From a virus: DNA of 43,580 nt. Both the position numbers and the translations under genes were made by a program. Under the pieces are notes generated by a model that ran no database searches, was not told the DNA's origin, and saw only the letters and a list, made by a program, of their open reading frames with translations. Below are positions 2,274 to 32,543 of this stretch, piece after piece; the first letter of the stretch is position 1, and each line of letters opens with the position of its first letter. The stretch covers positions 1-43,580 of the IMG/VR virus record IMGVR_UViG_3300022885_000033. One strand, 5' to 3'.

Positions 2274-2317
2274 TTTTTCTATCTCCATTAAAAACTAAGG
2301 GCATATTCCCTCAAAAT

Positions 2318-14066: not shown

Positions 14067-14091
14067 AGTAATATAACAACGGAGATTGAAT

Positions 14092-15186
14092 ATGGTTTAT
14101 TCTGTAGGTATTATCGGTGGTGGGAAGATTGGTTTAACAATTGCACATATGCTTTCTATGCACGACGATGTTTTATATACTGTATATGATGTATTACCTG
14201 AAAAGGATTTTCGCAAGAATGAAAAAATGTATGCGGGCAAGGCTAGTCATGTAAATTATAAACGTATGCCAGAAGATCCGAAAGACGCTACTAAGGAGCA
14301 TGATGCCATTGTATCATCTGCTCCCTTTTTTGTGAATAAAAAAATTGCCAAGGCGTGTGTTAAAACAGGCACAGCATATTTTGATCTTACAGAAGATGTT
14401 GAAACTACAAAATTTATCAAAAAATTAGCTGATAAACATAAACCATCTATCCCATTGATGCCACAAATGGGTTTGGCACCTGGTGCGATTAACATTATTG
14501 CCAATTATGTTGCTTCTGATTTTGAAATTATTAAGGATCTCGAACTCCGTGTTGGTGCCTTACCATTATCACCAATGAACCATATGAAATATTACTTGAG
14601 TTGGTCAACTGCTGGCGTAGTTAATGAATATTGCAACCCATGTGAAGGATTATGGAATGGTGAAAAGGTTATGCTCAAACCATTAGAAGGGTATGAAACC
14701 GTATCGCTTGATGGTACTGTTTATGAAGCTTTCAATACTTCTGGTGGTGTTGCGTCTATGATCGATACTTATCAAGATAAAGCGGAAAATTTAACTTATA
14801 AAACATTACGTTACCCAGGGCATTGTGACTATATGCGGTTCCTTATCGAGGATTTGAATTTAGGCAATAATAGGGACCTATTTGTTAAAATTATGGATCA
14901 AGAAGTTCCGTATACTACATCTGATGTTGTTGTTATCCATGTCAATTGTGTTGGTTATACCAAGGATGGATTATTAGCACAACGTTCATACACCAATAAA
15001 ATTTACGGTGATACGATAAATGGGTGTGATTTCTCCGCTATACAAGTTGCAACCGCAAGTGGTGTTGTGCCTTTAATCCTTGCATTTGCCAAGAAAAAAA
15101 TGTATACTGGTTTTGTAACTTCAGAAGCAGTCAAATTCGACTGGTTTGTGAAACAACCTTTTGGTAATGTATACAAGGAAACGTAA
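14092..15186 (+). CDS. Saccharopine dehydrogenase-family oxidoreductase
   Basis: The product has 364 residues. The N-terminal Rossmann fold is clear (VGIIGGGKIGLTIAHML). A catalytic-domain pattern typical of saccharopine dehydrogenase / lysine 6-dehydrogenase relatives follows: PQMGLAPGAINIIANYVASDF, GALPLSP.NHMKYYLSWSTAGVVNEYCNPC, TSGGVASM and LRYPGHCDYMRFL. Family members oxidise or reduce amino-acid adducts such as saccharopine or lysine with NAD(P). The exact substrate here is unknown. The start is ATG 14092, seven bases after GGAG; an upstream TTG is less likely. An intact, full-length metabolic dehydrogenase in a phage is an auxiliary metabolic gene candidate. Confidence 0.85.
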   Translation: MVYSVGIIGGGKIGLTIAHMLSMHDDVLYTVYDVLPEKDFRKNEKMYAGKASHVNYKRMPEDPKDATKEHDAIVSSAPFFVNKKIAKACVKTGTAYFDLTEDVETTKFIKKLADKHKPSIPLMPQMGLAPGAINIIANYVASDFEIIKDLELRVGALPLSPMNHMKYYLSWSTAGVVNEYCNPCEGLWNGEKVMLKPLEGYETVSLDGTVYEAFNTSGGVASMIDTYQDKAENLTYKTLRYPGHCDYMRFLIEDLNLGNNRDLFVKIMDQEVPYTTSDVVVIHVNCVGYTKDGLLAQRSYTNKIYGDTINGCDFSAIQVATASGVVPLILAFAKKKMYTGFVTSEAVKFDWFVKQPFGNVYKET

Positions 15187-15800: not shown

Positions 15801-18545
15801 ATGTACGTAGACGCTCTATTTGATAATAAGAAGAATAAGATTCTCGTTGTGGAACGTCGCAATGGGAAACGCATCTACGAAGAATATCCTGCCAAATATC
15901 GTTTTTACTATGACGATCCGAAAGGATCATTTACCACTGTTTATGGTACCCAGGTTGCAAAATTTGAGACCCGCGATCAGATGAAGTTCAGACGCGAACT
16001 CACAATGTACCGTGGCGATAGCCAACGCGCAGTTTATGAAAGCGATATCAATCCACTGAATATTTGTTTAGAAGAAAACTATTACGGCGCTGAGCAGCCA
16101 GAGCTAAACATTGGGTTCTTTGATATTGAGGTTGATTTTGATCCCGTCCGCGGTTATGCCAATCCCGAAGATCCGTTTATGATGATTACCGCTATTAGTG
16201 TTCATTGTACTCACATTGGGCAAACTATCTGTCTTACAATTCCACCAAAAGGGATGTCGGAAGAAGAATCACAGGGCATTGCCGATAAATTTAATGGTAC
16301 AGTAATTTTATTCGATGATGAAAGAGAATTACTTAAAACATTTTTAGACATAATTGAAGATTGTGATATATTATCAGGATGGAACTCAGCATTCTTTGAT
16401 ATTCCATATATCATCGGACGAATTGTAGAAATATTGGGATCTGATTATGTTCGCAAACTTTGCTTATGGGGACAAAAACCCAAACGCAAAACCGTTGAAA
16501 AATTTGGTAAGGAACAATTAACATTCGATTTAGTTGGTCGCGTTCATTTGGATTATTTGGATTTGTACAAAAAGCATTCCATGCAGGAACTACATTCATA
16601 TAAACTAGATTATGTCGGCGAAATTGAAGTAAAAAGAAAGAAGGTCGAATACGAAGGAACCTTGCATCAACTTTACAATGATGATTTTGAAAAGTTTATT
16701 GACTACAGTATCCAAGATACGGATTTGTTGGTAGATATTGACAAGAAAAACCAATACATCGATCTTGCGAACGCTGTTGCACACACCAATACGGTTTTAT
16801 TGAAAGCTACTTTGGGAACCGTGCAAGTTGTTGAACAAGCTATCATTAATGAAGCACATCAACGCGGCATGGTAGTTATGGACAAAGCAAATCATGGTGA
16901 TACTCTTCCAGTTGCGGGTGCATATGTTGCAGATCCCGTAGTTGGGATGCATGAAGAGATTGGCGCTATTGATATTAACTCTCTATACCCGTCAGTAATT
17001 CGCGCGTTGAATATGGGTCCAGAAACAATTGTTGGTCAAATTGAGTTAGATCAAACAGCGAAACATATCAATGATCTAATGGCTAAAGGCATCAGTGGTT
17101 CTGATGCATGGCATGATATGTTTGGTACCATAGAATTTCAACAATTTACTGGTGATCGTACTGAAGGACCAGAGTTATCAATATCATTCGAAGATGGTAA
17201 TGTTCTTAAAGGGAATATAGAAACAATTAAACGCTGGATCTGGAGTAACCAAGTATGCATCTCGGCAAATGGTACACTTTTTGCCACTGATCGAGTTGGT
17301 GTTATTGCAGGTATTCTTGGAAAATGGTACAATGAACGTGTAGAGATGCGGGCGAAGGTTGGTGAATATAAAAAATTGGTGAAGGAAGAAGATGATCCAG
17401 TTAAGAAAGCAGAATACAATGCGTTGGTTAGTTTCTGGGATAAGCGACAATATGTGCGTAAAATTCTATTGAACAGTTTGTATGGCGCGTTGCTAAATTC
17501 CCATTGCAGATTTTATGATCCACGCATTGGTCAATCAGTAACACTTACTGGTCGCTGCATTACACGCCATATGATTGAAACAACTAATGAATTGATCACC
17601 GGAAAACGCGATAAAAACGGTGATGGAATTATTTATGGTGATACGGATAGCTGTTATTTCTCCGCGGTTTCAACAATGCGCGGTAATCCAGACTTTGACG
17701 ATTTCTCATGGGATAAAGAAAATGTAATTGAGTTATATGATGCTATCGCTGATGGTGTTAATGATACTTTTATCAATTTCATGGTTGATACATTTCATAC
17801 CACAACTGACCGTGGTGGTATTATTGAGGCGGGTCGTGAACTAGTCGCAAGTCGAGGAATGTTTATCAAAAAGAAGCGTTATGCTCTTATGATCTATGAT
17901 GATGAAGGCTTCCGTATTGATAAAGTTAGTGAAGAAGAAGCCGAAGACAAAGGATATGTTTATGGTTTCGGTAAGATTAAAGCTATGGGAGTTGAAACAA
18001 AGCGCACCGATACATCAAAAGAAATACAAAAATTCCTTGAACAAATTCTTGAGAAAGTTCTATCTGGCAATACCGAGCAAGAAGTATTGGATTATATCAA
18101 AGAGTTCAGAGGTGAATTTAAGAAATGGCCTGGATGGTTAAAGGGTACTCCGAAGGGAGTTAATGGTCTTACTAAGTATGGTGAACTCGCAACAAAAGCC
18201 AAAGGTGCGAAAGTCAATATGCCAGGTCACGTTAGAGCAGCAATGAATTGGAATACTTTGAAAAAGTTGAATGATGATCTACATAGTTTAACTATTATGG
18301 ATGGTTTCAAAACTGTTGTTTGCAAACTGCGACCCAATCAATATAATATGACCAGTATTGGTTTTCCGGTCGATGAACCGCATCTTCCAAAATGGTTTAA
18401 AGAATTACCGTTCGATGATGATACAATGGATGCAAGCATTATTGAAAAGAAATTACAAAATCTTATCGGTATTTTAAAATGGGATCTTGATAGCACAAAA
18501 CAGAACAGCAATTTTAGTGATCTGTTTGGTATGCAGAAGAAGTAA
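15801..18545 (+). CDS. 43: Family B DNA polymerase (T4 gp43-like)
   Basis: The product has 914 residues, close to T4 gp43 (898), and is the replicative polymerase with 3'-5' proofreading. Exonuclease motifs are FFDIE (106-110; D108, E110), GWNSAFFDIPY (193-203) and YSIQD (302-306). Polymerase motifs are DINSLYPS (391-398), KILLNSLYGA (554-563) and YGDTDS (612-617), followed by the KKKRYAL segment. All catalytic aspartates are present. The C-terminus (about the last 20 residues, NFSDLFGMQKK) resembles a clamp-binding tail. It is followed by the sliding clamp gene. No intein or intron interruption is seen. Confidence 0.97.
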   Translation: MYVDALFDNKKNKILVVERRNGKRIYEEYPAKYRFYYDDPKGSFTTVYGTQVAKFETRDQMKFRRELTMYRGDSQRAVYESDINPLNICLEENYYGAEQPELNIGFFDIEVDFDPVRGYANPEDPFMMITAISVHCTHIGQTICLTIPPKGMSEEESQGIADKFNGTVILFDDERELLKTFLDIIEDCDILSGWNSAFFDIPYIIGRIVEILGSDYVRKLCLWGQKPKRKTVEKFGKEQLTFDLVGRVHLDYLDLYKKHSMQELHSYKLDYVGEIEVKRKKVEYEGTLHQLYNDDFEKFIDYSIQDTDLLVDIDKKNQYIDLANAVAHTNTVLLKATLGTVQVVEQAIINEAHQRGMVVMDKANHGDTLPVAGAYVADPVVGMHEEIGAIDINSLYPSVIRALNMGPETIVGQIELDQTAKHINDLMAKGISGSDAWHDMFGTIEFQQFTGDRTEGPELSISFEDGNVLKGNIETIKRWIWSNQVCISANGTLFATDRVGVIAGILGKWYNERVEMRAKVGEYKKLVKEEDDPVKKAEYNALVSFWDKRQYVRKILLNSLYGALLNSHCRFYDPRIGQSVTLTGRCITRHMIETTNELITGKRDKNGDGIIYGDTDSCYFSAVSTMRGNPDFDDFSWDKENVIELYDAIADGVNDTFINFMVDTFHTTTDRGGIIEAGRELVASRGMFIKKKRYALMIYDDEGFRIDKVSEEEAEDKGYVYGFGKIKAMGVETKRTDTSKEIQKFLEQILEKVLSGNTEQEVLDYIKEFRGEFKKWPGWLKGTPKGVNGLTKYGELATKAKGAKVNMPGHVRAAMNWNTLKKLNDDLHSLTIMDGFKTVVCKLRPNQYNMTSIGFPVDEPHLPKWFKELPFDDDTMDASIIEKKLQNLIGILKWDLDSTKQNSNFSDLFGMQKK

Positions 18546-18718: not shown

Positions 18719-19456
18719 ATGCGTGATGAATTACTGGATATCCTACAGCATACACTTGGTCTGGGTGTTATTACTGAGATTAAGATTACAGGCTCTGGCA
18801 CCGAGACACTAATTGATGCAATGGATGAAAACAATGCAGTCGTAATCAAAGGCAAGCTAAAAACTGCAAATGCTGCCCTTGAAGGTGAATACGGCTTGCG
18901 TTATTTGGATCGCCTAAAGGCATACTTGAACGATCCAAACTATAAGTCAGATGATGCAAACATTAGCATCAAAACTGATACTCGCAACGGAAAGAAGACA
19001 CCTGTTGAAATATTATTTGAAAACGTTGGTGCAAAGGATAGCACCGTGTATCGTCTGGTTAGTCCAGAACTATGCCGTGACTATTTTGATTTCAAGGGCG
19101 CCGACTGGACCGTTTCCTTTAGCCCAAGCAAGAGCATTGTAAGCAACTTTGCTTATAAGGCGGCGGCCGCTGGTTCTGAGTCAGCCAACTTCACAACTTC
19201 AAGTAATGATGATGGTGACATCATAATTGCAGTGGGAGAAGGTATGAGTTCATCATCCATCCTGTTTGGTGACGGTACAGACCATAAGCTAAAATTTGAA
19301 CTACGTTGGCCCACAGCACTTATACTTTCAGTCCTAAAGTTGGATGAAGGGAATGTTGAAGTTGATATTCTTGATGATCCACGTTCTGGTGCTTTGCAGG
19401 TTCGCGTGGATACCAAACTCGCTGAGTGGCAGTATATTTTCCCTCAGGTCAAGTAA
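18719..19456 (+). CDS. 45: Sliding clamp (T4 gp45-like)
   Basis: The product has 245 residues (T4 gp45: 228). The T4-type clamp is a trimeric ring that tethers the polymerase to DNA and activates late transcription. Evidence is the size, the position directly after the polymerase, and clamp-like alternating strand pattern: LRYLDRLKAYLNDPNYK, LVSPELCRDYFDFKGADWTVSFSPSK, DGDIIIAVGEG and LKFELRWPTALILSVLKLDEGNVEVDIL. The last block resembles the C-terminal strands of gp45. Sequence similarity to T4 is low, so the call leans on context. The ATG follows a TGGAGA ribosome site. The leader contains a TTGACA but no well-spaced -10. Confidence 0.75.
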   Translation: MRDELLDILQHTLGLGVITEIKITGSGTETLIDAMDENNAVVIKGKLKTANAALEGEYGLRYLDRLKAYLNDPNYKSDDANISIKTDTRNGKKTPVEILFENVGAKDSTVYRLVSPELCRDYFDFKGADWTVSFSPSKSIVSNFAYKAAAAGSESANFTTSSNDDGDIIIAVGEGMSSSSILFGDGTDHKLKFELRWPTALILSVLKLDEGNVEVDILDDPRSGALQVRVDTKLAEWQYIFPQVK

Positions 19457-20086: not shown

Positions 20087-21583
20087 ATGGCAGAAGAAAA
20101 TAATGTAGAAAACCTAAATTTTGATGATGAATGGGCGGTATTTCTTCCATCTATTTCATCACTGTATTCCAAGCTAGTATCAAAAGGTGATTCAGGTATT
20201 AAACGCCCTGTCCCTGCTAACATTGGTAGTATTGATGGCTTAGATTTCTTTAACTCATCCAAAGGCCTATATCGGTATGATCATGCGCTGTACTCGGCTG
20301 GCCATGCGCAATTGGACATAGAACGAAGTAACGTTCAGGAAAGCATGATTCAGAATCGTGAGCCAGGCCGTATTATCGTTGGTGACTCAGGTGGCTTCCA
20401 GATCTGTTCTGGCGTGTTGAAACTTAATTGGGATGACAGTGAGGCGATCAAAGAAACATGCTTAAAGATCACACGCTGGCTTGAACATACCGCAGACTAC
20501 AGCATGATCCTGGATATGCCAACATCAGGCATTTTCAACGAGAAGGCTCCAACAATCAACACTATTGAAGATTGTAAGTCATTTACTCACGCTAACATCA
20601 AGACGATGATTGAACATCGCGTGCCAGGTAAGACTGACTTCTTGAACGTTCTACAGGGACGTAACGCAGAAGAAAACTGGGACTGGTATCAGGAATACAA
20701 GCATTATAGTGATCCAGCTGAATACGGTGACCGTCGCCTAGAGGGTTGGGCGTTTGCTGGTAACTCAGTACGTGATATGTTCAGTCAGTTACGAATCCTA
20801 CGTGATATGGGTGAAAGTGGTTTACTTGAGAATACAAGCTGGATCCATATTCTAGGTGTTGGTAAAATCAAAGCCGGTCTTGCATATACTATTATCCAAA
20901 AGAAAATCCGTGAACGTTATGGTTCCAACGTGCGTCTAAGCTTTGATGCAGCAAGCCCATTCGTTAGTGTAGCTAAAGGTCGCATCTATACGGGCTATGC
21001 GCTTGAGGGCGGTCCGCTGGGTAAGGGAAAGCTATCACATAAGATGAATGCAATGCCCGACTCAAAGGATCTTGTGGGTAGTACGGAATTATGGCCAATC
21101 ATGGGTAGTCCATTCTTTGATGGTATGAAAATTGGTGAGCTTTGCTATAATGGTGATCCAAAGTTCAAAAGTGCTTGGGATGGGTTATCATATGGTGTGC
21201 TAATGGCGCACTCCACATACTTACACATCAAGTCAGTACACCAGGCGCTCAAAATCTTTGATCTACATGGCGCGGTGGACAAGAGAACAGACCGTTTTGT
21301 TGAAGAATTTATTCCAATGGATATTGTCAAATTCAAAGATATTGTTAATCAATTCTTTGATGCACCCAAAGACAAGGGTGATTTGATATTGGAGGATAAC
21401 AGAATCTTCCTAGAACGCTATATCAGTGCAATGGTCAAGAAGAAACCAGACCTAAATACTTCACCACTGTTTGAACAACAGATTAAAGATTCAGACACAT
21501 ATGATGTGGAAGATATTGAAGGTGAATTACACGACGTCGCTGATGATAATAACTTCAGCACAATGTTTGAGGAGACAATATAA
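20087..21583 (+). CDS. dpdA: DpdA-type DNA 7-deazaguanine transglycosylase
   Basis: The product has 498 residues and belongs to the tRNA-guanine transglycosylase superfamily. The GDSGGFQ motif (99-105, D100 as general acid/base), NVLQGR (187-192) and the nucleophile-type aspartate D287 in SFDAASP are all visible. Phage DpdA proteins exchange guanine in DNA for a 7-deazaguanine base such as preQ0, protecting phage DNA from restriction. A tRNA-directed TGT is the alternative, but the gene is next to FolE, QueD-like and QueE genes in a phage replication region, which favours DNA. It heads a run of coupled genes, and its stop overlaps the next start (TAATG). Confidence 0.88.
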   Translation: MAEENNVENLNFDDEWAVFLPSISSLYSKLVSKGDSGIKRPVPANIGSIDGLDFFNSSKGLYRYDHALYSAGHAQLDIERSNVQESMIQNREPGRIIVGDSGGFQICSGVLKLNWDDSEAIKETCLKITRWLEHTADYSMILDMPTSGIFNEKAPTINTIEDCKSFTHANIKTMIEHRVPGKTDFLNVLQGRNAEENWDWYQEYKHYSDPAEYGDRRLEGWAFAGNSVRDMFSQLRILRDMGESGLLENTSWIHILGVGKIKAGLAYTIIQKKIRERYGSNVRLSFDAASPFVSVAKGRIYTGYALEGGPLGKGKLSHKMNAMPDSKDLVGSTELWPIMGSPFFDGMKIGELCYNGDPKFKSAWDGLSYGVLMAHSTYLHIKSVHQALKIFDLHGAVDKRTDRFVEEFIPMDIVKFKDIVNQFFDAPKDKGDLILEDNRIFLERYISAMVKKKPDLNTSPLFEQQIKDSDTYDVEDIEGELHDVADDNNFSTMFEETI

Positions 21584-21939
21584 TGAGAAATACTTTTATT
21601 AAAGTTCGTACAGAGTTTGAGGGATTTCACTTCTATCCAAACGCTAGTGAAATTGATCAACGTATTAAATTCCTGGAAACTGAACATCGCCATATGTTTA
21701 AGGTTGATGTTAAAATTTCAGTCAACCATCTAGACCGTGAACTGGAATTCTTCCTAGTTAAATGGGACCTACAAGAGTTCATTGAATCTGGGAAGATGAA
21801 TCACAAATCATGTGAGATGATTGCTACTGATATCCTGGATGACCACCTAATTCCAAAATATGGTTCTAACCGTTATTATGAAATCATCGTCTCAGAAGAT
21901 GGTGAGTCAGATGGTATTGTAGAACATATCGCGGAATAA
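21583..21939 (+). CDS. queD: QueD-like 6-carboxytetrahydropterin synthase
   Basis: The product has 118 residues, the size of a T-fold PTPS/QueD protein. The zinc-site histidines appear in the right order: H16 in FEGFHFYPNA, then H35 and H37 in EHRHMFKV. A late SCEMIA segment (C77, E78) and VSEDGESDG resemble the E-x-x-A and C-terminal strand of QueD. QueD converts dihydroneopterin triphosphate, the FolE product, to 6-carboxytetrahydropterin, the QueE substrate. Both FolE and QueE are encoded in this window, which strongly supports the call. Overall similarity is modest, and a different T-fold activity is possible. It is coupled to dpdA by stop/start overlap. Confidence 0.65.
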   Translation: MRNTFIKVRTEFEGFHFYPNASEIDQRIKFLETEHRHMFKVDVKISVNHLDRELEFFLVKWDLQEFIESGKMNHKSCEMIATDILDDHLIPKYGSNRYYEIIVSEDGESDGIVEHIAE

Positions 21940-21947
21940 GAGACCAC

Positions 21948-22262
21948 ATGGATTTATTAACACATTTAAAGGATCAGTGGGAGTTTTCACAAAAAACATT
22001 TGGTCCAATTGAGTTCAAAAACCATATGGGCCCATTGAATCATATTAGGAAAGAACTTATTGAGATTGAGGATGAACCAACAGACCCATATGAGTGGGCA
22101 GACTTGATTCTATTATCTTTTGATGGTGCCATGCGTGCAAATATTCCACCAGAAATTATAGTCAAAGCAATCTCAGAAAAGCTTGAAATTAACAAAAATA
22201 GAGATTGGCCTGATTGGCGGGGGACTGATCCCAATGACCCAATTGAACATACAAAGGAATAA
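21948..22262 (+). CDS. MazG/DUF550-like nucleotide pyrophosphohydrolase
   Basis: The product has 104 residues. The metal-binding pattern ExxE...ExxD of all-alpha NTP pyrophosphatases is visible as E36-x-x-E39 and E49-x-x-D52 (KELIEIEDEPTDPYEWAD). The DUF550-like signature PLNHIRKELIEIE...EWADLILLSFDGAMR and WPDWR...PIEH follows. This family includes dATP/dGTP diphosphohydrolases, among them MazZ of base-Z phages. The gene sits between QueD-like and glycosyltransferase genes. It may trim a dNTP or modified-nucleotide pool as part of DNA modification; the substrate is inference. Confidence 0.8.
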   Translation: MDLLTHLKDQWEFSQKTFGPIEFKNHMGPLNHIRKELIEIEDEPTDPYEWADLILLSFDGAMRANIPPEIIVKAISEKLEINKNRDWPDWRGTDPNDPIEHTKE

Positions 22263-22267
22263 GAAAT

Positions 22268-23341
22268 ATGACTATTTGGATTGTAGAGATTGAGCCTGTT
22301 GAATCACGCTATACAGCGCAATGGAAGAAATATATTCCAGACATGGTGAGGCGGGCCACCAATCAGGAGGTCATTGAGATTGAAGGACCAACAGATATCC
22401 CCGCTGCTACGACACCAGGTGCGTTTCTGAATTTTGGAGGCACCAATGTATACAAGAGTAACCAGATGGAGCAAATGAGTCGCCACTTTACAGAAGGACG
22501 AGTCAAAAAAGGTGACCATATCGTATTCACTGATGCTTGGAACCCTGGTATCCTACAAATCCGCTATATGAGTGATCTGTTGGGTATATCAGTTAAAATT
22601 CACGCATTATGGCATGCGGGTTCATATGACCCACAGGACTTCCTGGGAAGATTGATTACGAATAAAGAATGGACGTATAATACAGAACGAGCGTTGTTCT
22701 ATGCTATTGATCACAACCATTTCGCAACTGATTTCCATATCAAAATGTTTGCTGATGAAATACTACCAACAGTGGATGCAATAACTCTCGATAACTGGCA
22801 AGGCAATAAGATCATCCGTACAGGGTGGCCGATGGAATATATGCGTGATGTGTTGACTCCATACATGGGTATGAAGAAAGAGAATATCGTATTGTTTCCA
22901 CATCGTATTGCTCCTGAAAAACAAGTAGACATATTCAGAGACCTTGGAAAATATATCAATGGTTGGGAATTTATTGTTTGTCAGGATGAGCAACTAACAA
23001 AAGATGAATACCATGAATTACTTGGAAAAGCAAAGATGGTGTTCAGTGCTAACCTACAAGAGACTTTGGGTATCAGCTGCTATGAGGGTGCATTAACAGG
23101 TGCTATCCCATTGGTTCCGAACCGACTTTCTTACGTAGAAATGTATTCAGACCGGTTTAAGTACCCAAGTGAATGGACTACATCTTTTAACAGTTATATG
23201 AAAAACAGAGATGTACTGTCTGTTCATATAGTGAATATGCTTAATAATTATGATTCATTAGTTGAAGAAACAAATAATGAAGCCAATTTACTTGAAATTA
23301 ACTTTTTTAATTGCAATAACTTCCTTGATACGTTAAAATAA
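22268..23341 (+). CDS. GT-B (GT4-like) glycosyltransferase
   Basis: The product has 357 residues. The C-terminal Rossmann half carries the GT4-type hallmarks: FPHRIAPEKQ (210-219; R.....EK) and the E-x7-E motif, E265 and E273, in ANLQETLGISCYEGALTGAIPLVP (read as two overlapping parts). N-terminal residues such as WHAGSYDP (115-122) are plausible acceptor or sugar contacts. GT-B enzymes transfer a sugar from a nucleotide sugar. In T-even phages, DNA glucosylation uses GT-B enzymes. Placement inside the 7-deazaguanine run suggests that the acceptor is a modified base in DNA, although a surface glycan or protein acceptor cannot be excluded. Confidence 0.82.
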   Translation: MTIWIVEIEPVESRYTAQWKKYIPDMVRRATNQEVIEIEGPTDIPAATTPGAFLNFGGTNVYKSNQMEQMSRHFTEGRVKKGDHIVFTDAWNPGILQIRYMSDLLGISVKIHALWHAGSYDPQDFLGRLITNKEWTYNTERALFYAIDHNHFATDFHIKMFADEILPTVDAITLDNWQGNKIIRTGWPMEYMRDVLTPYMGMKKENIVLFPHRIAPEKQVDIFRDLGKYINGWEFIVCQDEQLTKDEYHELLGKAKMVFSANLQETLGISCYEGALTGAIPLVPNRLSYVEMYSDRFKYPSEWTTSFNSYMKNRDVLSVHIVNMLNNYDSLVEETNNEANLLEINFFNCNNFLDTLK

Positions 23342-23350
23342 GGAAACTAA

Positions 23351-23518
23351 GGAGAAATAAATGAAATGAATAAACCAAATCAAGATATTATAGGAGAAAT
23401 AAATGAAATGAATAAACCAAATCAAGATATTATAGGAGAAATAAATGAAATGAATAAACCAAATCAAGATATTATAGGAGAAATAAATGAAATGAATAAA
23501 CCAAATCAAGATATTATA
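23351..23518 (+). repeat. Four tandem 42-bp repeats, each with ribosome site and start codon
   Basis: Four exact copies of a 42-bp unit start at 23351, 23393, 23435 and 23477. Each contains GGAGAAATAA, then ATGAAATGA, then ATG-started coding sequence for MNKPNQDIIGEINE. Because 42 is divisible by three, all copies stay in frame with FolE. Their in-frame ATGs are at 23366, 23408, 23450 and 23492. The lack of any mismatch between copies suggests recent expansion. Confidence 0.95.
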
Positions 23519-24304
23519 AATGCTCTTAAGATCCTCCAAGGGAATGGTATTGACACATCACAAATTTCCGATAACTATACAGATGATATTAAAAATTCAT
23601 TAATCGTATTGAACACGATTCAAGAATCAAGTATTTCAGATATTATTCGTGATCGCATTAAGCAAGATGGTGCGGAATTCCGCAGCAACCAGAACATCAG
23701 CAAGTATATTGAACCTGATGAAATGGAACTGTTGGTTGATGAAGTAGCAGAAAAGATGCAGGGTGTACTTGAAAGCCTTGTAATTGATACGGAGAACGAT
23801 CATAACACTCATGATACTGCGCGTCGTGTGGCTAAGATGTTTGTTAAAGAAACATTTGCTGGCCGTTATGCACCGGTACCCAAGGTAACAAGCTTCCCCA
23901 ATATGGGATATCAGAGTTTGTATGCAACTGGGCCCATCACAATACGCTCAACATGCGCCCACCACTTCCAGAACATTGTGGGGAAATGTTGGGTTGGTAT
24001 CTTCCCAGAAGATGAAGTAATCGGTCTTTCAAAATTCAACCGCTTAATTCATCATATAGCTGAACGTCCACAGATTCAGGAAGAGATGACAACCCAGATT
24101 GCAGATGCCCTGCAAGAATATGCAAAGACTGAACATGTTGCTGTTCTTGTTAAAGCTGAACATCACTGTATGACACACCGAGGTGTGCGTGAACATGAAA
24201 GCGATATGACCACAGCTATTATGACTGGTCACTTCAGTGACGATAGCAGTTTGAAGCAGGAATTTTATAATATCTGTTTGAGTATGAAGGGTCATAAGGA
24301 CTGA
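23366..24304 (+). CDS. folE: GTP cyclohydrolase I with repeat-expanded N-terminus
   Basis: The product has 312 residues from the first repeat ATG, or 270 from the last (23492). The catalytic domain (about 115-310) has the zinc site C197-x-x-H200 in STCAHHF and C268 in EHHCMTHRGV, with catalytic histidines at 199 and 266/267. FolE converts GTP to dihydroneopterin triphosphate, the first step to preQ0 and to folate or pterins. Here QueE, QueD-like and DpdA nearby point to 7-deazaguanine. Residues 1-56 are four copies of MNKPNQDIIGEINE (the last diverges after DII), followed by a helical extension of about 55 residues not typical of the family. Its stop overlaps the next start. Confidence 0.95.
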   Translation: MNKPNQDIIGEINEMNKPNQDIIGEINEMNKPNQDIIGEINEMNKPNQDIINALKILQGNGIDTSQISDNYTDDIKNSLIVLNTIQESSISDIIRDRIKQDGAEFRSNQNISKYIEPDEMELLVDEVAEKMQGVLESLVIDTENDHNTHDTARRVAKMFVKETFAGRYAPVPKVTSFPNMGYQSLYATGPITIRSTCAHHFQNIVGKCWVGIFPEDEVIGLSKFNRLIHHIAERPQIQEEMTTQIADALQEYAKTEHVAVLVKAEHHCMTHRGVREHESDMTTAIMTGHFSDDSSLKQEFYNICLSMKGHKD

Positions 24305-24531
24305 TGGTACGAAAAGTAACATCAAGTCTGGATATGCCATTAGCCATGAAGGAAGAGGAATTTTTAAATCTTCCATTCAATCATATTATTACTAATATGG
24401 TACCAGGTGTTCTTTATCGTTATAATAAATCAAACGATGGAGAAGGAATATGTATCATTAAATTTGATAATTCAGTTGAAACTTTTGATATCCGGACAGT
24501 TAAACTGATTAAGGGAATAAACGGTGACTAA
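24304..24531 (+). CDS. Hypothetical small protein, paralog of the gene at 25018
   Basis: The product has 75 residues. It shares the pattern (S/F)D-x-P-x-x-M-x-x-E-(E/D)-FL-x-(L/I)-P with the gene two positions downstream (LDMPLAMKEEEFLNLP against FDVPEEMSLEDFLQIP). Both have a small beta-rich second half ending in a K-L-I or K-I-K-I strand. The start overlaps the folE stop (TGATG) and the end overlaps the next gene. Function unknown. The two paralogs flank a nuclease-like gene, so an accessory or inhibitor role is conceivable but unproven. Confidence 0.6.
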   Translation: MVRKVTSSLDMPLAMKEEEFLNLPFNHIITNMVPGVLYRYNKSNDGEGICIIKFDNSVETFDIRTVKLIKGINGD

Positions 24532-25018
24532 TAATTTTCAAACACAATTAGCATATGGTCAGGAATTTGAAAAAAAGGCGCAAAGGATTCTCATAAAACA
24601 GTTTGAAGGGAATTATGTTATATCGACGAGATTCAGTAGTAATCACGGTCAAAGTGATTTAGACCCAAGAGCATTTTCAACTAATGATGATTTGGTTCTT
24701 CCGGATTTTATGATACTAGGATATAAGAGTGTTCCAATTTGGGTTGATGCAAAAAGGAAATCAAATTTCTTCCCACACAATAATCGGAATGCTACATCAC
24801 TTGATCCAAAATTCTGGGGTAAATGTAAAAAACTAAGTGACAAATTGGGTGAAGAAATTTGGATTATAATGGGTATTGATACGATACCAGGTATAATTTA
24901 TTTCTTTGAATATGATGCCGTCGACGATCTTCGACAATTCAACAATATCCATAATGATAATCCAGATGAATACACACCGGTTTATTATTTAGATCAACTA
25001 ATACAATGGAGAATTTAA
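24524..25018 (+). CDS. PD-(D/E)XK-like nuclease candidate
   Basis: The product has 164 residues. It reads like a restriction-endonuclease fold: an N-terminal helix with YGQEFEKKAQRIL (E14), then PD at 60-61 in VLPDFMILG, then D75-A-K77 in PIWVDAKRK. This gives the E...PD...DxK catalytic set. The N-terminal GQSDLDPR segment may also contribute. The GTG start at 24524 follows an AAGGGA ribosome site and overlaps the previous gene. Enzymes of this fold cut DNA; degradation of unmodified host DNA or recombination-intermediate processing would fit the context. The fold call is by motif order only. Confidence 0.6.
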   Translation: MTNNFQTQLAYGQEFEKKAQRILIKQFEGNYVISTRFSSNHGQSDLDPRAFSTNDDLVLPDFMILGYKSVPIWVDAKRKSNFFPHNNRNATSLDPKFWGKCKKLSDKLGEEIWIIMGIDTIPGIIYFFEYDAVDDLRQFNNIHNDNPDEYTPVYYLDQLIQWRI

Positions 25019-25248
25019 TGACAATAATTAATACAATTTTTGATGTACCAGAAGAAATGTCCTTAGAGGATTTCTTACAAATACCTCATCGTGATAGTAT
25101 ATCCAATTATTCTGACATAGGAATTTTATCTCGGATGACCGATGCCGTCGAGGTTAACGATAATAATATGGGAATCGTTAGAGTTACCACAAACTGTGGT
25201 GAAGACGGTGGTCCCAAAATCAATCTTTTAAAAATTAAGATTGTATAA
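25018..25248 (+). CDS. Hypothetical small protein, paralog of the gene at 24304
   Basis: The product has 76 residues from the ATG at 25018, which overlaps the previous stop and lies after GGAGAATT. An in-frame ATG at 25006 would include the ribosome site. It shares FDVPEEMSLEDFLQIP with its paralog before the nuclease gene and ends in INLLKIKIV. No family recognised. Tight overlap with its neighbours indicates a single transcript. Confidence 0.6.
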   Translation: MTIINTIFDVPEEMSLEDFLQIPHRDSISNYSDIGILSRMTDAVEVNDNNMGIVRVTTNCGEDGGPKINLLKIKIV

Positions 25249-25252
25249 TATC

Positions 25253-25735
25253 ATGACTAACAAAGTTTATTACACGAACGAAATGGTTGAAAAGGGCGTT
25301 CTTGGTATAGCACGTCAAATGATGTTTGATGAATGGAGACCAGATTATATTGTTGGTCTAAACCGTGGCGGTTTGTTTCCGAGTGTCCTTCTTAGTCATT
25401 ATTTGAAGTGTAACCATTATGCATTAGATTGCCGGCTTCGTGATGCACCAACAAACGTTGAGCATTTTGGTCCAGAGCACAATGCTTGGATGTCTGATGA
25501 TGCTGATAAGTTTAAGAATATTCTCATCGTAGATGACATCAATGATTCAGGTGAAACTTTCAAATGGGTCATCGATGATTGGCAATGTATAGAACGATTA
25601 GGTCGAAACGTTCGAACTGCGGCTGTTATTGAAAATATCTCTAGTGAGTTCTCAACAACATACAACCATTACGAGATTAATAAGGCCGAAGACGACTGTT
25701 GGATAGTTTTTCCTTGGGAAAATTGGTGGGAATAA
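25253..25735 (+). CDS. Phosphoribosyltransferase-family protein
   Basis: The product has 160 residues from the ATG at 25253. The PRPP-binding motif is clear: ILIVDDINDSGET (90-102). The upstream IVGLNRGGLFPSVLLSHYL (33-51) is the typical helix-loop of type I phosphoribosyltransferases such as Gpt or Hpt. Such enzymes convert a free base plus PRPP to a nucleotide. In this setting salvage of guanine or of a deazaguanine-type base is imaginable, but the base specificity cannot be read from the sequence. The C-terminus (VFPWENWWE) is tryptophan-rich. The stop overlaps the next start. Confidence 0.85.
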   Translation: MTNKVYYTNEMVEKGVLGIARQMMFDEWRPDYIVGLNRGGLFPSVLLSHYLKCNHYALDCRLRDAPTNVEHFGPEHNAWMSDDADKFKNILIVDDINDSGETFKWVIDDWQCIERLGRNVRTAAVIENISSEFSTTYNHYEINKAEDDCWIVFPWENWWE

Positions 25736-26094
25736 TGGTTGGATTTTTTACAGACAATGAATTAACCAATCGTGCCGAAGTCGCAGATAGATATGCAAAA
25801 GGGCAAATGGAACTATACGATGGAAAATATAAGGATAACATATTTCACCAGAATGTAAAAATTATCATTGATGGAGAAAATGTATCAGAGGATTTCTTGC
25901 GGCATGTTCAAGGATTATATGAAGGCTGTCGGAAGTTCCGTGTACTAAAGAATGAAACTGGTTGGCCTACTACCAGTGAAGAAATTCGGCGGCGTGATGC
26001 ATGGGATCGATTACAAGAACGTTGCGAAAAAGATGAAACCCTCAAAGAGATGTGGGATGAAATAATGGTTATGGGAAAGTTAATGGAGGATTGA
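25735..26094 (+). CDS. Hypothetical helical protein
   Basis: The product has 119 residues from the ATG overlapping the previous stop (TAATG). It is highly charged and probably helical in the second half (SEEIRRRDAWDRLQERCEKDETLKEMWDEI, read in parts). The middle (IIIDGENVSEDFLRHVQGLYEG) looks like a short strand-helix unit. There is no membrane segment and no family recognised. It is coupled on both sides to the phosphoribosyltransferase and HNH genes. Confidence 0.65.
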   Translation: MVGFFTDNELTNRAEVADRYAKGQMELYDGKYKDNIFHQNVKIIIDGENVSEDFLRHVQGLYEGCRKFRVLKNETGWPTTSEEIRRRDAWDRLQERCEKDETLKEMWDEIMVMGKLMED

Positions 26095-26097
26095 TTG

Positions 26098-26619
26098 ATG
26101 GTGACAGCATATGATAATGGTGAGAATGATTTATTGATATCACGAAAAAACGGAGGACCTTTTTTAAATACAGTAACCTGGAAACAAGCTTATAAAAATG
26201 GATGGAAATATTACCATGGTAAATATTGCACAAAATGTAGATCATATATTAGACAACTTGGTTACGGTAATCCATCAACTAGCCATCAAAAGAATCAATG
26301 TTATGTTTGCAAATTAATACGGGATGCGGCGTATAGAGCTAAGATGAGGATGTCATCGCTATCTATCACAGAACAATTAATTATTAAAGAAATATACAAA
26401 ACACAAGCTGCATGGAATTCTGTGCATCCAGGGAATCAAGTGCATGTTCATCATATTATACCATTACAGCAAGATGGCGCAAATGGGACACATCAGTCGA
26501 ATAACCTAATTATACTTGCAGAACAATTTCACAAGGATGTTCATGCCAATGGGTGGAAATATTATGTGAAAAATTTTCAAAACCATATTGCACATAATCC
26601 ATATGACATATATCCATAA
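26098..26619 (+). CDS. HNH endonuclease with zinc-ribbon cysteines
   Basis: The product has 173 residues from ATG 26098, seven bases after GGAGGA. Two CxxC pairs (C44/C47 and C68/C71) probably bind zinc. The HNH motif follows: VHVHHIIPL (H118, H119), N135/N136 in SNNLIIL, and H145 in EQFHKD. Free-standing HNH nucleases of this kind are common in T4-like phages as homing-type or accessory nucleases. There is no sign of an intron around it. It ends the gene run before the queE leader. It may be a mobile gene inserted in the modification module. Confidence 0.85.
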   Translation: MVTAYDNGENDLLISRKNGGPFLNTVTWKQAYKNGWKYYHGKYCTKCRSYIRQLGYGNPSTSHQKNQCYVCKLIRDAAYRAKMRMSSLSITEQLIIKEIYKTQAAWNSVHPGNQVHVHHIIPLQQDGANGTHQSNNLIILAEQFHKDVHANGWKYYVKNFQNHIAHNPYDIYP

Positions 26620-26641
26620 ACATATAGCTAAATCTTCGCGG

Positions 26642-26649
26642 TCTAAATA
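26642..26649 (+). promoter_or_regulatory. TAAATA late-like promoter motif upstream of queE
   Basis: TCTAAATA lies 32 bases before the queE ATG, in a 62-base gap. The decamer GTCTAAATAT is identical to one upstream of dpdA. Confidence 0.4.
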
Positions 26650-26681
26650 TAGTAAGTTACAACAATAACAGGAATAAAATA

Positions 26682-27554
26682 ATGTTTGGAATGAATGAAA
26701 AAGTCGGCCGCAACTATTTTGCAAATGCCACAAAAGATACATTAACAGTTACCAGCCGATTCTATACATTACAAGGCGAAGGGCCATTCCGTGGTTTTCC
26801 AGCCTATTTTGTTAGACTGACTAAATGCAATTTGGCGTGTAGTTTTTGTGACACTTTTTTCGACCAAGGAGATGACCTTTCGTTCGACGAAATCTTCAAA
26901 CAAATCGATATTGATATTGCCAAGTTCTACGAAGAGAGAAATATGGAAATTCCAAGCTGGGCACAAGGAACAAATAGAAGAATTGTTCTCGTTGTTACAG
27001 GTGGTGAACCGTCATTACAACAAAATCTAACCAAGTTTCTTGCAGAAGCCGATAAAACATTTTTCCATACACAAATTGAATCTAATGGTATTTTGCACTT
27101 GGACTTGAGTTCAGCGACTACTTATGTGGTTAGTCCGAAGTGTTTAGAAAAAGGTGAAGTTGCTATTAAATATTTACAACCCAACCAAAAAGTTCTTGAT
27201 AGAGCAGATTGTTTAAAGTTTGTTATGACTTCACCAAATAATGAGCAATTTACACCATACAGCGAAGTTCCTGATTGGGCGCATGAATGGGCTATTCAAA
27301 CTAGTAAACCAATCTTCGTCAGTCCGATGAATATCTATAAGCAAGAACCACAAAAGGCTAAAGAAATGCGTTCATCAAATAAGGAAATTACCATCGATGA
27401 ACGATCAACTGTAGACGAGACGATTAGTTTTTGGGATGAAGGGCTTCTTGATATGAAGGCAAACCAACGCAACCATGAATATACCGCAGAGTACGCAATG
27501 AAATATGGATTTATTCTAAACTTGCAGATACATTTATTTGCTTCTTTACCATAA
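26682..27554 (+). CDS. queE: 7-carboxy-7-deazaguanine synthase QueE (radical SAM)
   Basis: The product has 290 residues. QueE rearranges 6-carboxytetrahydropterin to 7-carboxy-7-deazaguanine using SAM and a 4Fe-4S cluster. The motif C49-x3-C53-x2-C56 is in TKCNLACSFCDT, preceded by FYTLQGEGPFRGFPAYFVRL, the substrate/metal region typical of QueE. TGGEPSL (106-112) binds SAM. It is longer than E. coli QueE (223 residues), with an insertion around residues 62-98. It is followed by a strong terminator, which ends the 7-deazaguanine block. QueC, the next enzyme, is not in the window and must come from elsewhere in the phage or from the host. Confidence 0.95.
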   Translation: MFGMNEKVGRNYFANATKDTLTVTSRFYTLQGEGPFRGFPAYFVRLTKCNLACSFCDTFFDQGDDLSFDEIFKQIDIDIAKFYEERNMEIPSWAQGTNRRIVLVVTGGEPSLQQNLTKFLAEADKTFFHTQIESNGILHLDLSSATTYVVSPKCLEKGEVAIKYLQPNQKVLDRADCLKFVMTSPNNEQFTPYSEVPDWAHEWAIQTSKPIFVSPMNIYKQEPQKAKEMRSSNKEITIDERSTVDETISFWDEGLLDMKANQRNHEYTAEYAMKYGFILNLQIHLFASLP

Positions 27555-31901: not shown

Positions 31902-32543
31902 ATGAAACCATCAGTATTTGTTTTTGATAATTTTTATTTAGAACCGGATGAAGTCCGGCATATCGCTCTCAACGATTTTGAGTGGGAGGATGAAAAAGTG
32001 GCTGGGCCTTATGCTGGCCTCAATTCTATCCATCCGTATTGCGAAGAGTTCCATGAAGACTTTATGGGCAATTGTACAAATGCATGGCCGGTAAATCCAA
32101 CCGTGTTTGGTCATTTTCGAATGAGCCGGAAAGACTCATCATTTAAACAATATATCCATTGCAACCCAGGAGTCTCCTGGATTGGCGTCATCTATCTATC
32201 AAAAGGTTATGACGATATTCCCGGGACGGTATTTTGGAGACACAAGCGCACAGGGTTGACTCATGCACCAACCGATCCATACAAATATCACCAATATGGT
32301 AATAGCGATGCTTCTTCATCACTAAATTGGTTTAATAATATTGATGGCGTAGATGAATCTCTTTGGATTAAATCAAATGTTATTTCATTCCAATATAACC
32401 GTTTAGTATTATTCAGAGGTGATGCTTTCCATAGTCACGGAGATCTTTTCGGATCAAATGATGATGACAGCCGCTTGCTTCAAATTTTTCAATGGAATGC
32501 AGTTGACAAAGAATACGAATGGTGGAGCAAACAAACTTCTTAA
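31902..32543 (+). CDS. DUF6445-like protein (2OG-Fe(II) oxygenase-type fold candidate)
   Basis: The product has 213 residues. The order FDNFYLEPDEVRHIAL, FRMSRKDSSFKQYIHCNPGVSWIGVIYLSKG, GTVFWRHKRTG, and NRLVLFRGDAFHSHGDLFG.....RLLQIFQW matches the DUF6445 pattern as I recall it. These proteins look like relatives of prolyl-4-hydroxylase-type oxygenases with a double-stranded beta helix. An N-terminal H-x-D iron motif is not obvious (IHCN here), so catalysis is uncertain. H157-like HSHGD near the end could be the distal metal ligand. It is convergent with the tail-fibre gene; the two overlap by four bases. Confidence 0.6.
   Translation: MKPSVFVFDNFYLEPDEVRHIALNDFEWEDEKVAGPYAGLNSIHPYCEEFHEDFMGNCTNAWPVNPTVFGHFRMSRKDSSFKQYIHCNPGVSWIGVIYLSKGYDDIPGTVFWRHKRTGLTHAPTDPYKYHQYGNSDASSSLNWFNNIDGVDESLWIKSNVISFQYNRLVLFRGDAFHSHGDLFGSNDDDSRLLQIFQWNAVDKEYEWWSKQTS

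What the first reader, a model, noticed from the sequence alone, without database searches (positions are those of the whole stretch)
20087..27554. 7-deazaguanine DNA-modification module with a glycosyltransferase and a MazG-like enzyme
DpdA, QueD-like, FolE and QueE are encoded in one 7.5-kb block next to the replicative polymerase and clamp. That covers GTP to 7-carboxy-7-deazaguanine plus insertion into DNA. A GT4-like glycosyltransferase (E-x7-E) and a DUF550/MazG-like pyrophosphohydrolase are coupled inside the same run. Known phage 7-deazaguanine systems (dpdA with folE/queD/queE/queC) modify guanine in DNA. A sugar added on top of a 7-deazaguanine base would be a new type of hypermodification. 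QueC is missing here, so the final base could be a carboxy/amido form or rely on QueC from elsewhere.
Basis: partly seen in the sequence, partly recalled or inferred. Interest (0 to 1): 0.85.

Follow-up and report, generated by a model that had tools for sequence, protein, structure and literature searches.

The report
Predicted sugar-decorated 7-deazaguanine phage DNA
A virus of bacteria carries genes that probably swap guanine in its DNA for a close analogue and may then attach a sugar to it; the same gene partnership recurs in other viruses and a few bacteria, so the idea can be tested on phages already in culture.

Summary
The window is a fragment of a jumbo-phage relative. DpdA, FolE, QueE, a GT4-type glycosyltransferase (GT) and a PF04447 protein are real. 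The PF04447 (MazG-like) protein is peculiar to this virus. The GT is linked to DpdA: present with it in 52 of 52 GT-seeded viral loci with at least 6 kb upstream, in several gene orders and three GT lineages, with two distant DpdA families, and in six bacterial genomes beside a YhhQ-type transporter. Around DpdA2 genes, GT and QueC exclude each other (51 GT only, 4 QueC only, 0 both). Cultured carriers: Paride/PA5oct, Phosso, ACP17, X1, BUCT-ZZ01. Best reading: a 7-deazaguanine DNA-modification branch, usually without local QueC, ending in a glycosylated base. No chemistry was tested; sugar, attachment atom and T-fold reaction are unknown. Against it: some bacterial DpdA relatives lack the GT, three of 22 GT-bearing viral contigs have partial QueC-family matches, and four of six bacterial hosts have QueC. 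Two central publications could not be read.

The parts
20087..21583 (+). DpdA-like DNA-guanine transglycosylase (divergent family)
   Evidence: Profile-profile match to the DpdA2 group incl. phage nt-1 (E 2.9e-6); DSGG in 84 and S/T-F/Y-D in 83 of 85 distinct family ORFs of 380 aa or more; 31% identical to a Paride protein
21583..21939 (+). T-fold protein, PTPS/QueD paralogue without QueD's catalytic Cys (phrog_17812)
   Evidence: phrog_17812 E 9.1e-21; model pLDDT 94.2; Z 12.0, rmsd 2.5, 108 residues to E. coli QueD 4ntk; no Cys within 10 residues before HxH in 183 of 185 relatives
21948..22262 (+). PF04447 dATP/dGTP pyrophosphohydrolase-like protein; probably not part of the conserved module
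   Evidence: E 1.6e-27; in no other source except L005/L082 (same virus)
22268..23341 (+). GT4-type glycosyltransferase, predicted to glycosylate the 7-deazaguanine base
   Evidence: Invariant E265, E273, R213, K218 in 46 of 46; model pLDDT 86.6; Foldseek E 1.6e-9 to glycogen synthase, VIA Z 23.3, rmsd 3.0, 297 residues to GT4 2jjm; linked to DpdA
23366..24304 (+). FolE, GTP cyclohydrolase I, with an N-terminal 42-base tandem repeat
   Evidence: PF01227 E 6.8e-46; repeat
25241..25735 (+). Purine (xanthine/guanine-type) phosphoribosyltransferase; possible salvage of guanine released by DpdA
   Evidence: PF00156 E 2e-10; best NCBIfam model xanthine phosphoribosyltransferase, E 4.5e-8 but below its cut-off; relatives in 47 of 61 GT-seeded loci with at least 6 kb downstream
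26682..27554 (+). QueE-like radical SAM protein, 7-carboxy-7-deazaguanine synthase
   Evidence: phrog_2076 E 1.2e-47; NCBIfam QueE models to E 1.2e-20, below their cut-offs; C-x3-C-x2-C seen in the sequence
15801..18545 (+). Family B DNA polymerase (context)
   Evidence: PF00136 E 2.7e-31
18719..19456 (+). Sliding clamp (context)
   Evidence: Similar to the annotated clamp of phage Phosso (E 2e-41)

Best explanation
A branch of 7-deazaguanine DNA modification that ends in a glycosylated base. FolE and QueE (here) with a QueD (not in this fragment; elsewhere in the phage or from the host) make 7-carboxy-7-deazaguanine. The T-fold protein, which stands where QueC stands in other DpdA2 phages, processes or delivers that base. 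DpdA exchanges it for guanine in DNA. The GT transfers a sugar from a nucleotide-sugar to the base, most simply after insertion. The phosphoribosyltransferase recycles the released guanine. Shown by computation: gene identities, conserved catalytic residues of DpdA and GT, the altered T-fold active site, the GT-DpdA association, the local exclusion of QueC and GT around DpdA2. Inferred: DNA as DpdA's target, the order of steps, glycosylation itself, guanine salvage. Unknown: the sugar, the atom it sits on, and the T-fold reaction (decarboxylation of the carboxy base is one candidate; I recall, unverified, that Cui et al. 2023 proposed a decarboxylase named DpdL).
For: GT-seeded viral loci with at least 6 kb upstream: DpdA in 52 of 52, T-fold in 52 of 52; with at least 6 kb downstream: FolE 58 and QueE 52 of 61. 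T-fold-seeded loci, 32 of 80 well flanked: DpdA and GT together 26, neither 5, GT only 1, DpdA only 0. DpdA2-seeded loci, 55 of 80 well flanked: GT without QueC 51 (49 with T-fold), QueC without GT 4, both 0. Thirteen arrangements of the three genes and three GT clusters linked at 30% identity, of 159, 46 and 43 loci, with DpdA in 137, 46 and 43. Ten complete phage genomes with a T-fold: GT in the five with a known DpdA, in none of the five without. GT loci in genome contigs: DpdA nearby in 10 of 13; six of them with a Vut_1/YhhQ-type transporter and no FolE or QueE within the stretch. Sugar-type enzymes near the module in relatives: UDP-glucose/GDP-mannose dehydrogenase family 39, alcohol dehydrogenase 29, Gfo/Idh/MocA 27 of 77 GT-seeded loci.
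Against: No chemistry exists. The GT-seeded viral loci are largely one syntenic lineage, so counts are not independent. In 397 genomes of the Devosia order, six have this DpdA family and only the Devosia genome, chosen because it has the GT, has the GT. Three of 22 GT-bearing viral contigs have partial QueC-family matches over the cut-off and two more below it; X1 has a weak one; four of the six bacterial genomes with the DpdA-GT unit have a full-length QueC; four of those six units have no T-fold. One viral locus (L163) and one MAG locus (L269) have GT, T-fold, FolE and QueE but no DpdA hit despite long flanks. If the T-fold protein decarboxylates the base, no obvious acceptor atom is left for a sugar. 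The QueC profile was built from three sequences.
Confidence: 0.55

Rival explanations
1. Ordinary, unglycosylated 7-deazaguanine modification (for example carboxy-, deaza- or cyano-deazaguanine inserted by DpdA, the T-fold acting as an accessory or decarboxylase), while the GT acts on another target such as a different base, a protein or a surface glycan.
For: Phages have GTs for other purposes; five phages with T-fold and FolE but no detected DpdA also lack this GT, so T-fold function does not need a sugar; DpdA elements without GT exist in bacteria.
Against: The GT goes with DpdA in different gene orders, three GT lineages and bacterial genomes without phage synteny, beside a queuosine-precursor-type transporter.
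Confidence: 0.27
2. The system modifies tRNA: the DpdA-like protein is a tRNA-type transglycosylase and the GT makes a glycosylated queuosine-like nucleoside in tRNA.
For: DpdA and tRNA TGT are one superfamily (an ACP17 relative hits the TGT model at E 4.6e-7); mannosylated and galactosylated queuosine in tRNA are recalled from general knowledge.
Against: PF01702 (tRNA TGT) finds no match in ten related phage genomes while 14 of 14 controls ring; the profile matches the DpdA2 group of phages such as nt-1, whose DNA carries 7-deazaguanines (PMC6884629, passages); the gene sits between clamp and replication genes.
Confidence: 0.1
3. A pterin-glycoside pathway: FolE and the T-fold protein make a pterin that the GT glycosylates, as in cyanobacterial tetrahydrobiopterin glucoside synthesis; DpdA is a neighbour only.
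For: The GT model matches the tetrahydrobiopterin glucosyltransferase (5zer, Foldseek rank 19; 5zes, Z 20.9), tied with many other GT4 enzymes; the T-fold is PTPS-like.
Against: Five of five phage genomes with FolE and T-fold but no detected DpdA lack the GT; six bacterial DpdA-GT units have no FolE or QueE in the stretch, four no T-fold.
Confidence: 0.04

Closest known systems
Phage 7-deazaguanine systems of the DpdA2 type (Vibrio phage nt-1; Hutinet et al. 2019, PMC6884629, passages read)
   Same: FolE, QueE and a DpdA in one cluster; the window's DpdA family is a remote relative of DpdA2
   Different: nt-1, Ps15 and pf16 have QueC in the cluster and no T-fold or GT in the stretches seen; the window has T-fold and GT and no QueC
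PA5oct/Paride deazaguanine system (Iyer et al. 2021, PMC7824862, passages read)
   Same: Paride has DpdA, GT, T-fold and QueE next to polymerase and clamp, in nearly the same order
   Different: FolE and two PF01242 genes lie some 50 kb away in Paride; the passages read mention a deazaguanine system but no GT or T-fold partner
QueD (6-carboxytetrahydropterin synthase)
   Same: Fold (Z 12.0) and three conserved histidines in the T-fold protein
   Different: No PF01242 match, no catalytic Cys (183 of 185), occurs beside a true QueD
T4 alpha/beta-glucosyltransferases (recalled)
   Same: Would likewise put a sugar on a DNA base after replication, if the prediction holds
   Different: Different acceptor base; kinship of the GT with them was not tested
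Bacterial dpd islands (GATOR-GC preprint PMC11888242, passages read)
   Same: Chromosomal DpdA, with a YhhQ transporter gene among neighbours in some islands
   Different: The bacterial units found here pair DpdA with a transporter and a GT; ten proteins tested (eight from four of the units, two from the window) gave no PADLOC hit

Membership tests
Phage 7-deazaguanine DNA modification (dpdA with folE, queD, queE, queC) | DpdA of the TGT superfamily with its catalytic motifs | tested here: met
   hhalign E 2.9e-6, probability 88, to the DpdA2 group with DSGG, LD/FD, QG, H-x-LG and S-F/Y-D aligned
Phage 7-deazaguanine DNA modification (dpdA with folE, queD, queE, queC) | FolE and QueE | tested here: met
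Phage 7-deazaguanine DNA modification (dpdA with folE, queD, queE, queC) | QueD | tested here: inconclusive
   No PF01242 match in the 43.6-kb fragment; present in the complete genomes of Paride, Phosso and ACP17
Phage 7-deazaguanine DNA modification (dpdA with folE, queD, queE, queC) | QueC (the preQ0 type) | tested here: inconclusive
   No PF06508 match in the window nor in complete Paride, Phosso, ACP17 and BUCT-ZZ01 genomes; the window is a fragment; partial matches over the cut-off in 3 of 22 GT-bearing viral contigs
Phage 7-deazaguanine DNA modification (dpdA with folE, queD, queE, queC) | 7-deazaguanine present in virion DNA | not testable with these tools
   Needs LC-MS
QueD, for 21583-21939 | PTPS T-fold | tested here: met
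   Z 12.0, rmsd 2.5, 108 residues to 4ntk
QueD, for 21583-21939 | PF01242 match and catalytic Cys before the HxH motif | tested here: not met
   No PF01242 hit; Cys absent in 183 of 185 relatives, whereas 84 of 84 canonical QueD ORFs keep C-x3-H-G
QueD, for 21583-21939 | Asp-His dyad | tested here: inconclusive
   150 of 185 have no D-H string in a loosely defined interval, 35 have one that was not examined; 84 of 84 QueD ORFs have a D-H string
GT4-type glycosyltransferase, for 22268-23341 | GT-B fold of GT4 type | tested here: met
   VIA Z 23.3 to GT4 2jjm, 23.9 to BshA
GT4-type glycosyltransferase, for 22268-23341 | E-x7-E motif and R-x4-K donor-site residues (motifs recalled) | tested here: met
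   E265, E273, R213, K218 invariant in 46
GT4-type glycosyltransferase, for 22268-23341 | Pfam Glycos_transf_1 over its cut-off | tested here: not met
   Window protein E 0.13; 17 of 46 relatives match at E 0.1 or better, best 5.8e-5
DNA glycosyltransferase | DNA base as acceptor | not testable with these tools
   Biochemistry needed
2-aminoadenine (Z) genome system (considered because of PF04447) | PurZ | tested here: inconclusive
   No PF00709 match in the window, but the window is a fragment
tRNA-guanine transglycosylase (Tgt) | PF01702 match | tested here: not met
   Window protein: no Pfam family at E 1; none in ten related phage genomes, 14 of 14 controls ring

The most novel reading that the evidence does not exclude
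A widespread hypermodification, mostly independent of QueC, in which one sugar or two (35 loci have a GT on each side of DpdA and T-fold) is attached to a 7-deazaguanine in DNA by DpdA, a T-fold enzyme and GT4-type glycosyltransferases, often with the phage's own sugar-type enzymes, and which also exists as mobile-looking units in bacterial chromosomes that may import the base.
Probability: 0.45. Interest if true: 0.9.

Novelty: new variant of a known kind. Interest (0 to 1): 0.74.

Why it matters
A sugar on a 7-deazaguanine in DNA would be a purine counterpart of glucosyl-hydroxymethylcytosine and a new class of hypermodified base. It could help explain how several large phages, among them Paride and PA5oct, cope with host nucleases, and would point to a new family of DNA glycosyltransferases. 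It is testable on cultured phages rather than on this uncultured one.

Tried and rejected
Pfam, PHROGs and NCBIfam for the window's DpdA: no hit. HMMER with the DpdA family profile without ACP17 gave no hit at E 1 or better in ACP17, X1, nt-1, Ps15, pf16 or BUCT-ZZ01, so profile-profile comparison was used. PDB sequence searches with the DpdA, GT and T-fold profiles and with the Ps15 DpdA2 gave nothing useful. hhalign of T-fold against phage QueD was weak (probability 13, E 0.002); the relation rests on fold. The first 25 kb of the window has no megablast match in the phage collection. A Z-genome reading of the PF04447 gene found no PurZ in the fragment. A pterin-glycoside reading was weakened. 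A kinship of the GT with tRNA-queuosine mannosyltransferase was considered from memory; no such entry was among the rows shown, which excludes nothing.

Limits of the counts. One search used 51 of 75 GT sequences (95% redundancy removed). Over all 80 T-fold loci: both 50, neither 26, DpdA only 2, GT only 2; over all 80 DpdA2 loci: GT without QueC 75, QueC only 4, none of them 1. The DpdA2 seed held both QueC-type and GT-type members; the QueC profile came from three sequences and also scored on a protein of PhiXhv-15 annotated as an aminotransferase. Fisher p values 3e-5 and 3e-6 are nominal because loci are related. Some of the 13 arrangements may come from cut contigs. Of 27 GT loci without DpdA, 23 have under 3.4 kb upstream of the GT; the other four are L163, L269, Phosso's GT locus (its DpdA lies elsewhere) and PhiXhv-15. 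DpdA types other than the window family, DpdA2 and PF01702 were not searched in the five T-fold phages called DpdA-less. The transporter profile was built from five of the six loci it then found (L265 is the independent one); by Pfam two of five tested pass the cut-off.

Literature. Listings. Passages only: PMC6884629, PMC12783734, PMC6892783, PMC10761892, PMC11079468, PMC13282480, PMC13120357, PMC9025141, PMC7824862, PMC12028318, PMC10002423, PMC11888242. None of the passages seen couples a GT to DpdA. Cui et al. 2023 (10.1093/nar/gkad657) and the 2024 review PMC10966956 are not held, so prior description there cannot be excluded; what I say of DpdL is recalled.

I corrected the FolE repeat difference (42 bases, one copy), the recombinase identity (77-78%), and added the partial QueC-family matches and the host QueC; for these two I lowered the novel-case probability from 0.5 to 0.45.
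Full report
What is in the window. The record is a 43,580-base linear virus contig, often a sign of a fragment. Its family B polymerase is nearest to those of the phages Phosso (44.5% identity, 469 kb) and Atu_ph07 (43.5%, 490 kb). A second contig of 48,979 bases is the same virus: the stretches compared (L005, L082, L091) are 100% identical apart from one 42-base repeat copy, and it runs about 9.9 kb beyond the window's start. After polymerase and clamp runs a tight set of forward genes: DpdA, T-fold protein, PF04447 protein, GT, FolE, small ORFs around a purine phosphoribosyltransferase, an HNH protein and QueE.

Identities. FolE and QueE are clear. DpdA has no Pfam, PHROG, NCBIfam or PADLOC hit, but tblastn finds relatives in 11 Pseudomonas phage records (Paride and PA5oct among them, 31%), Phosso and a Vibrio phage, and its 31-row family matches a six-member DpdA2 profile (nt-1, ACP17, X1, BUCT-ZZ01, Ps15, pf16) with E 2.9e-6 and probability 88, aligning DSGGFQ with DSGGLQ, LD with FDEIP, H-x-LG and SFD with SYD. 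ACP17's DpdA2 hits the TGT superfamily model at E 4.6e-7, below its cut-off. The GT has a GT-B model (pLDDT 86.6) whose best matches are GT4/GT5-type enzymes; E265, E273, R213 and K218 do not vary in 46 relatives.

The 'QueD' is something else. Its model (pLDDT 94.2) is a T-fold nearest to PTPS (Z 12.5) and QueD (Z 12.0), with dihydroneopterin aldolase (11.3) and QueF-like (10.8) close behind. PF01242 does not hit it. Across 185 distinct relatives three histidines, R52, E55, S76-C77-E78 and E105-D106 are conserved at 99-100%, while 183 have no Cys in the ten residues before HxH; 84 of 84 canonical QueD ORFs in the same set of loci keep C-x3-H-G and a D-H string. Canonical QueD is a separate gene in Paride (two PF01242 hits), Phosso and ACP17, and stands beside the T-fold gene in 49 of 55 well-flanked DpdA2 loci. 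So the T-fold protein is an extra step. In Vibrio phage Bakedbeans it is the C-terminal part of a longer protein, and in Chryseobacterium phage MA9V-3 it is fused to an endonuclease VII-like domain.

The GT goes with DpdA. The GT search in viral contigs gave 77 loci. Of 52 with at least 6 kb upstream, 52 have DpdA and 52 the T-fold gene; of 61 with at least 6 kb downstream, 58 have FolE, 52 QueE and 47 the phosphoribosyltransferase. These are largely one syntenic lineage, so four further tests were made. (1) T-fold-seeded loci, 32 of 80 well flanked: 26 with DpdA and GT, 5 with neither, 1 with GT only, 0 with DpdA only. (2) DpdA2-seeded loci, 55 of 80 well flanked: 49 with T-fold and GT, 2 with GT only, 4 with QueC only, 0 with GT and QueC. 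(3) Order and lineage: 13 arrangements in 198 loci, 35 of them with a GT on either side of DpdA and T-fold; GT clusters at 30% linkage of 159, 46 and 43 loci with DpdA in 137, 46 and 43; of all 27 GT loci without DpdA, 23 are cut off within 3.4 kb upstream of the GT. (4) Ten complete phage genomes with a T-fold: the GT family is in the five with a known DpdA (Paride, Phosso, ACP17, X1, BUCT-ZZ01) and in none of the five without one (RHph_I1_18, Ahp1, Bakedbeans, D479, MA9V-3) (BUCT-ZZ01's DpdA by tblastn).

Outside phage records. Of 13 GT loci found in the genome collection, 10 have DpdA nearby. Four of these (L258, L259, L260, L267, all MAG contigs) carry the phage-type module. Six (Azospirillum, Methylobacterium, a Rhizobiales isolate, Devosia, Aurantimonas, Pelagibacterium) carry DpdA, a Vut_1/YhhQ-type transporter and the GT without FolE or QueE in the stretch, two also the T-fold. 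Three have a related recombinase (77-78% identical) close by, so they look mobile. Against an obligatory link: of 397 genomes of the Devosia order, six have this DpdA family and only the Devosia genome has the GT; the other five show DpdA, one of them broken, without transporter or GT in the roughly 4-kb stretches seen. Four of the six bacterial genomes have a full-length QueC, so their base need not be the carboxy form.

QueC in the GT-bearing phages. PF06508 is absent from the window and from complete Paride, Phosso and ACP17 and BUCT-ZZ01; X1 has a weak partial match and a PAPS-reductase-type protein in its cluster. Among 22 GT-bearing viral contigs, five have partial matches, three over the cut-off, none reaching past 76 of 210 profile positions; whether these are QueC is open. 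The exclusion is therefore a local pattern.

Chemistry inferred. With FolE, QueD and QueE but no QueC the product should be 7-carboxy-7-deazaguanine; Hutinet et al. 2019 noted that a phage lacking only QueC could carry that base (PMC6884629, passages). The T-fold protein stands where nt-1, Ps15 and pf16 have QueC, so it may act on the carboxy base. Decarboxylation is a candidate known to me only by recall; it would leave no obvious acceptor for a sugar, which is the weakest point of the model. Relatives often add sugar-type enzymes: UDP-glucose/GDP-mannose dehydrogenase family in 39, an alcohol dehydrogenase in 29 and a Gfo/Idh/MocA oxidoreductase in 27 of 77 GT-seeded loci. The phosphoribosyltransferase, annotated as xanthine-guanine type in BUCT-ZZ01, may salvage the guanine that DpdA releases; this is inference.

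What is not part of it. The PF04447 protein occurs only in this virus among the 83 sources; a MazG-type protein of another family occurs in six of 51 non-redundant GT loci.

Known or new. Iyer et al. 2021 already list a deazaguanine synthesis/incorporation system in PA5oct (PMC7824862, passages). Ten library searches and the passages read gave no paper that couples a GT with DpdA, but two central publications are not held. I file it as a new variant of 7-deazaguanine DNA modification. Missing QueC lowers the claim that it is the known preQ0 system, not the claim that it works like one.

Noticed in passing
23350-23518: Four perfect copies of a 42-base unit at the start of folE, one copy more than in the other contig of the same virus: a length-variable N terminus.
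   Followed up: partly
L072:6413-6934: A 173-aa family without Pfam or PHROG hit lies just upstream of the T-fold gene in 41 of 51 non-redundant GT loci; a likely further module member, not labelled in the window.
   Followed up: partly
L088:5373-9530: In Synechococcus phage BUCT-ZZ01 two different GT4-type genes flank DpdA and T-fold; 35 loci share this GT-DpdA-T-fold-GT order.
   Followed up: partly
L090:7428-8309: Chryseobacterium phage MA9V-3 fuses the T-fold domain to an endonuclease VII-like domain (phrog_1035, phrog_3322).
   Followed up: no
L271-L274, L276: Short bacterial DpdA elements without GT or transporter in view; several share a large ORF upstream of DpdA and some have a recombinase nearby.
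   Followed up: partly
L093:2520-5001: In Stenotrophomonas phage Ps15 a myo-inositol-1-phosphate synthase and a phosphoribosyltransferase lie beside QueC and DpdA.
   Followed up: no
L096:5669-8903: Xanthomonas phage PhiXhv-15 has a remote GT relative next to a fructose-6-phosphate aminotransferase and a GlcNAc-malate deacetylase-like gene, without deazaguanine genes nearby: perhaps another DNA or sugar pathway.
   Followed up: no
1260-2288 (-): A phosphate-binding-type periplasmic protein (PF12849, E 3e-43) in a phage fragment.
   Followed up: no
14086-15186: A saccharopine-dehydrogenase-like enzyme (PF16653, E 2e-16) just upstream of the polymerase.
   Followed up: no
24524-25018: ORF of 164 aa without Pfam or PHROG family, by eye with a nuclease-like D...D-A-K pattern; seen only in this virus.
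   Followed up: no
32540-37150 (-): A 1536-aa protein with SPRY, F5/8-type C and DUF7483 domains, probably a tail or adhesion protein.
   Followed up: no
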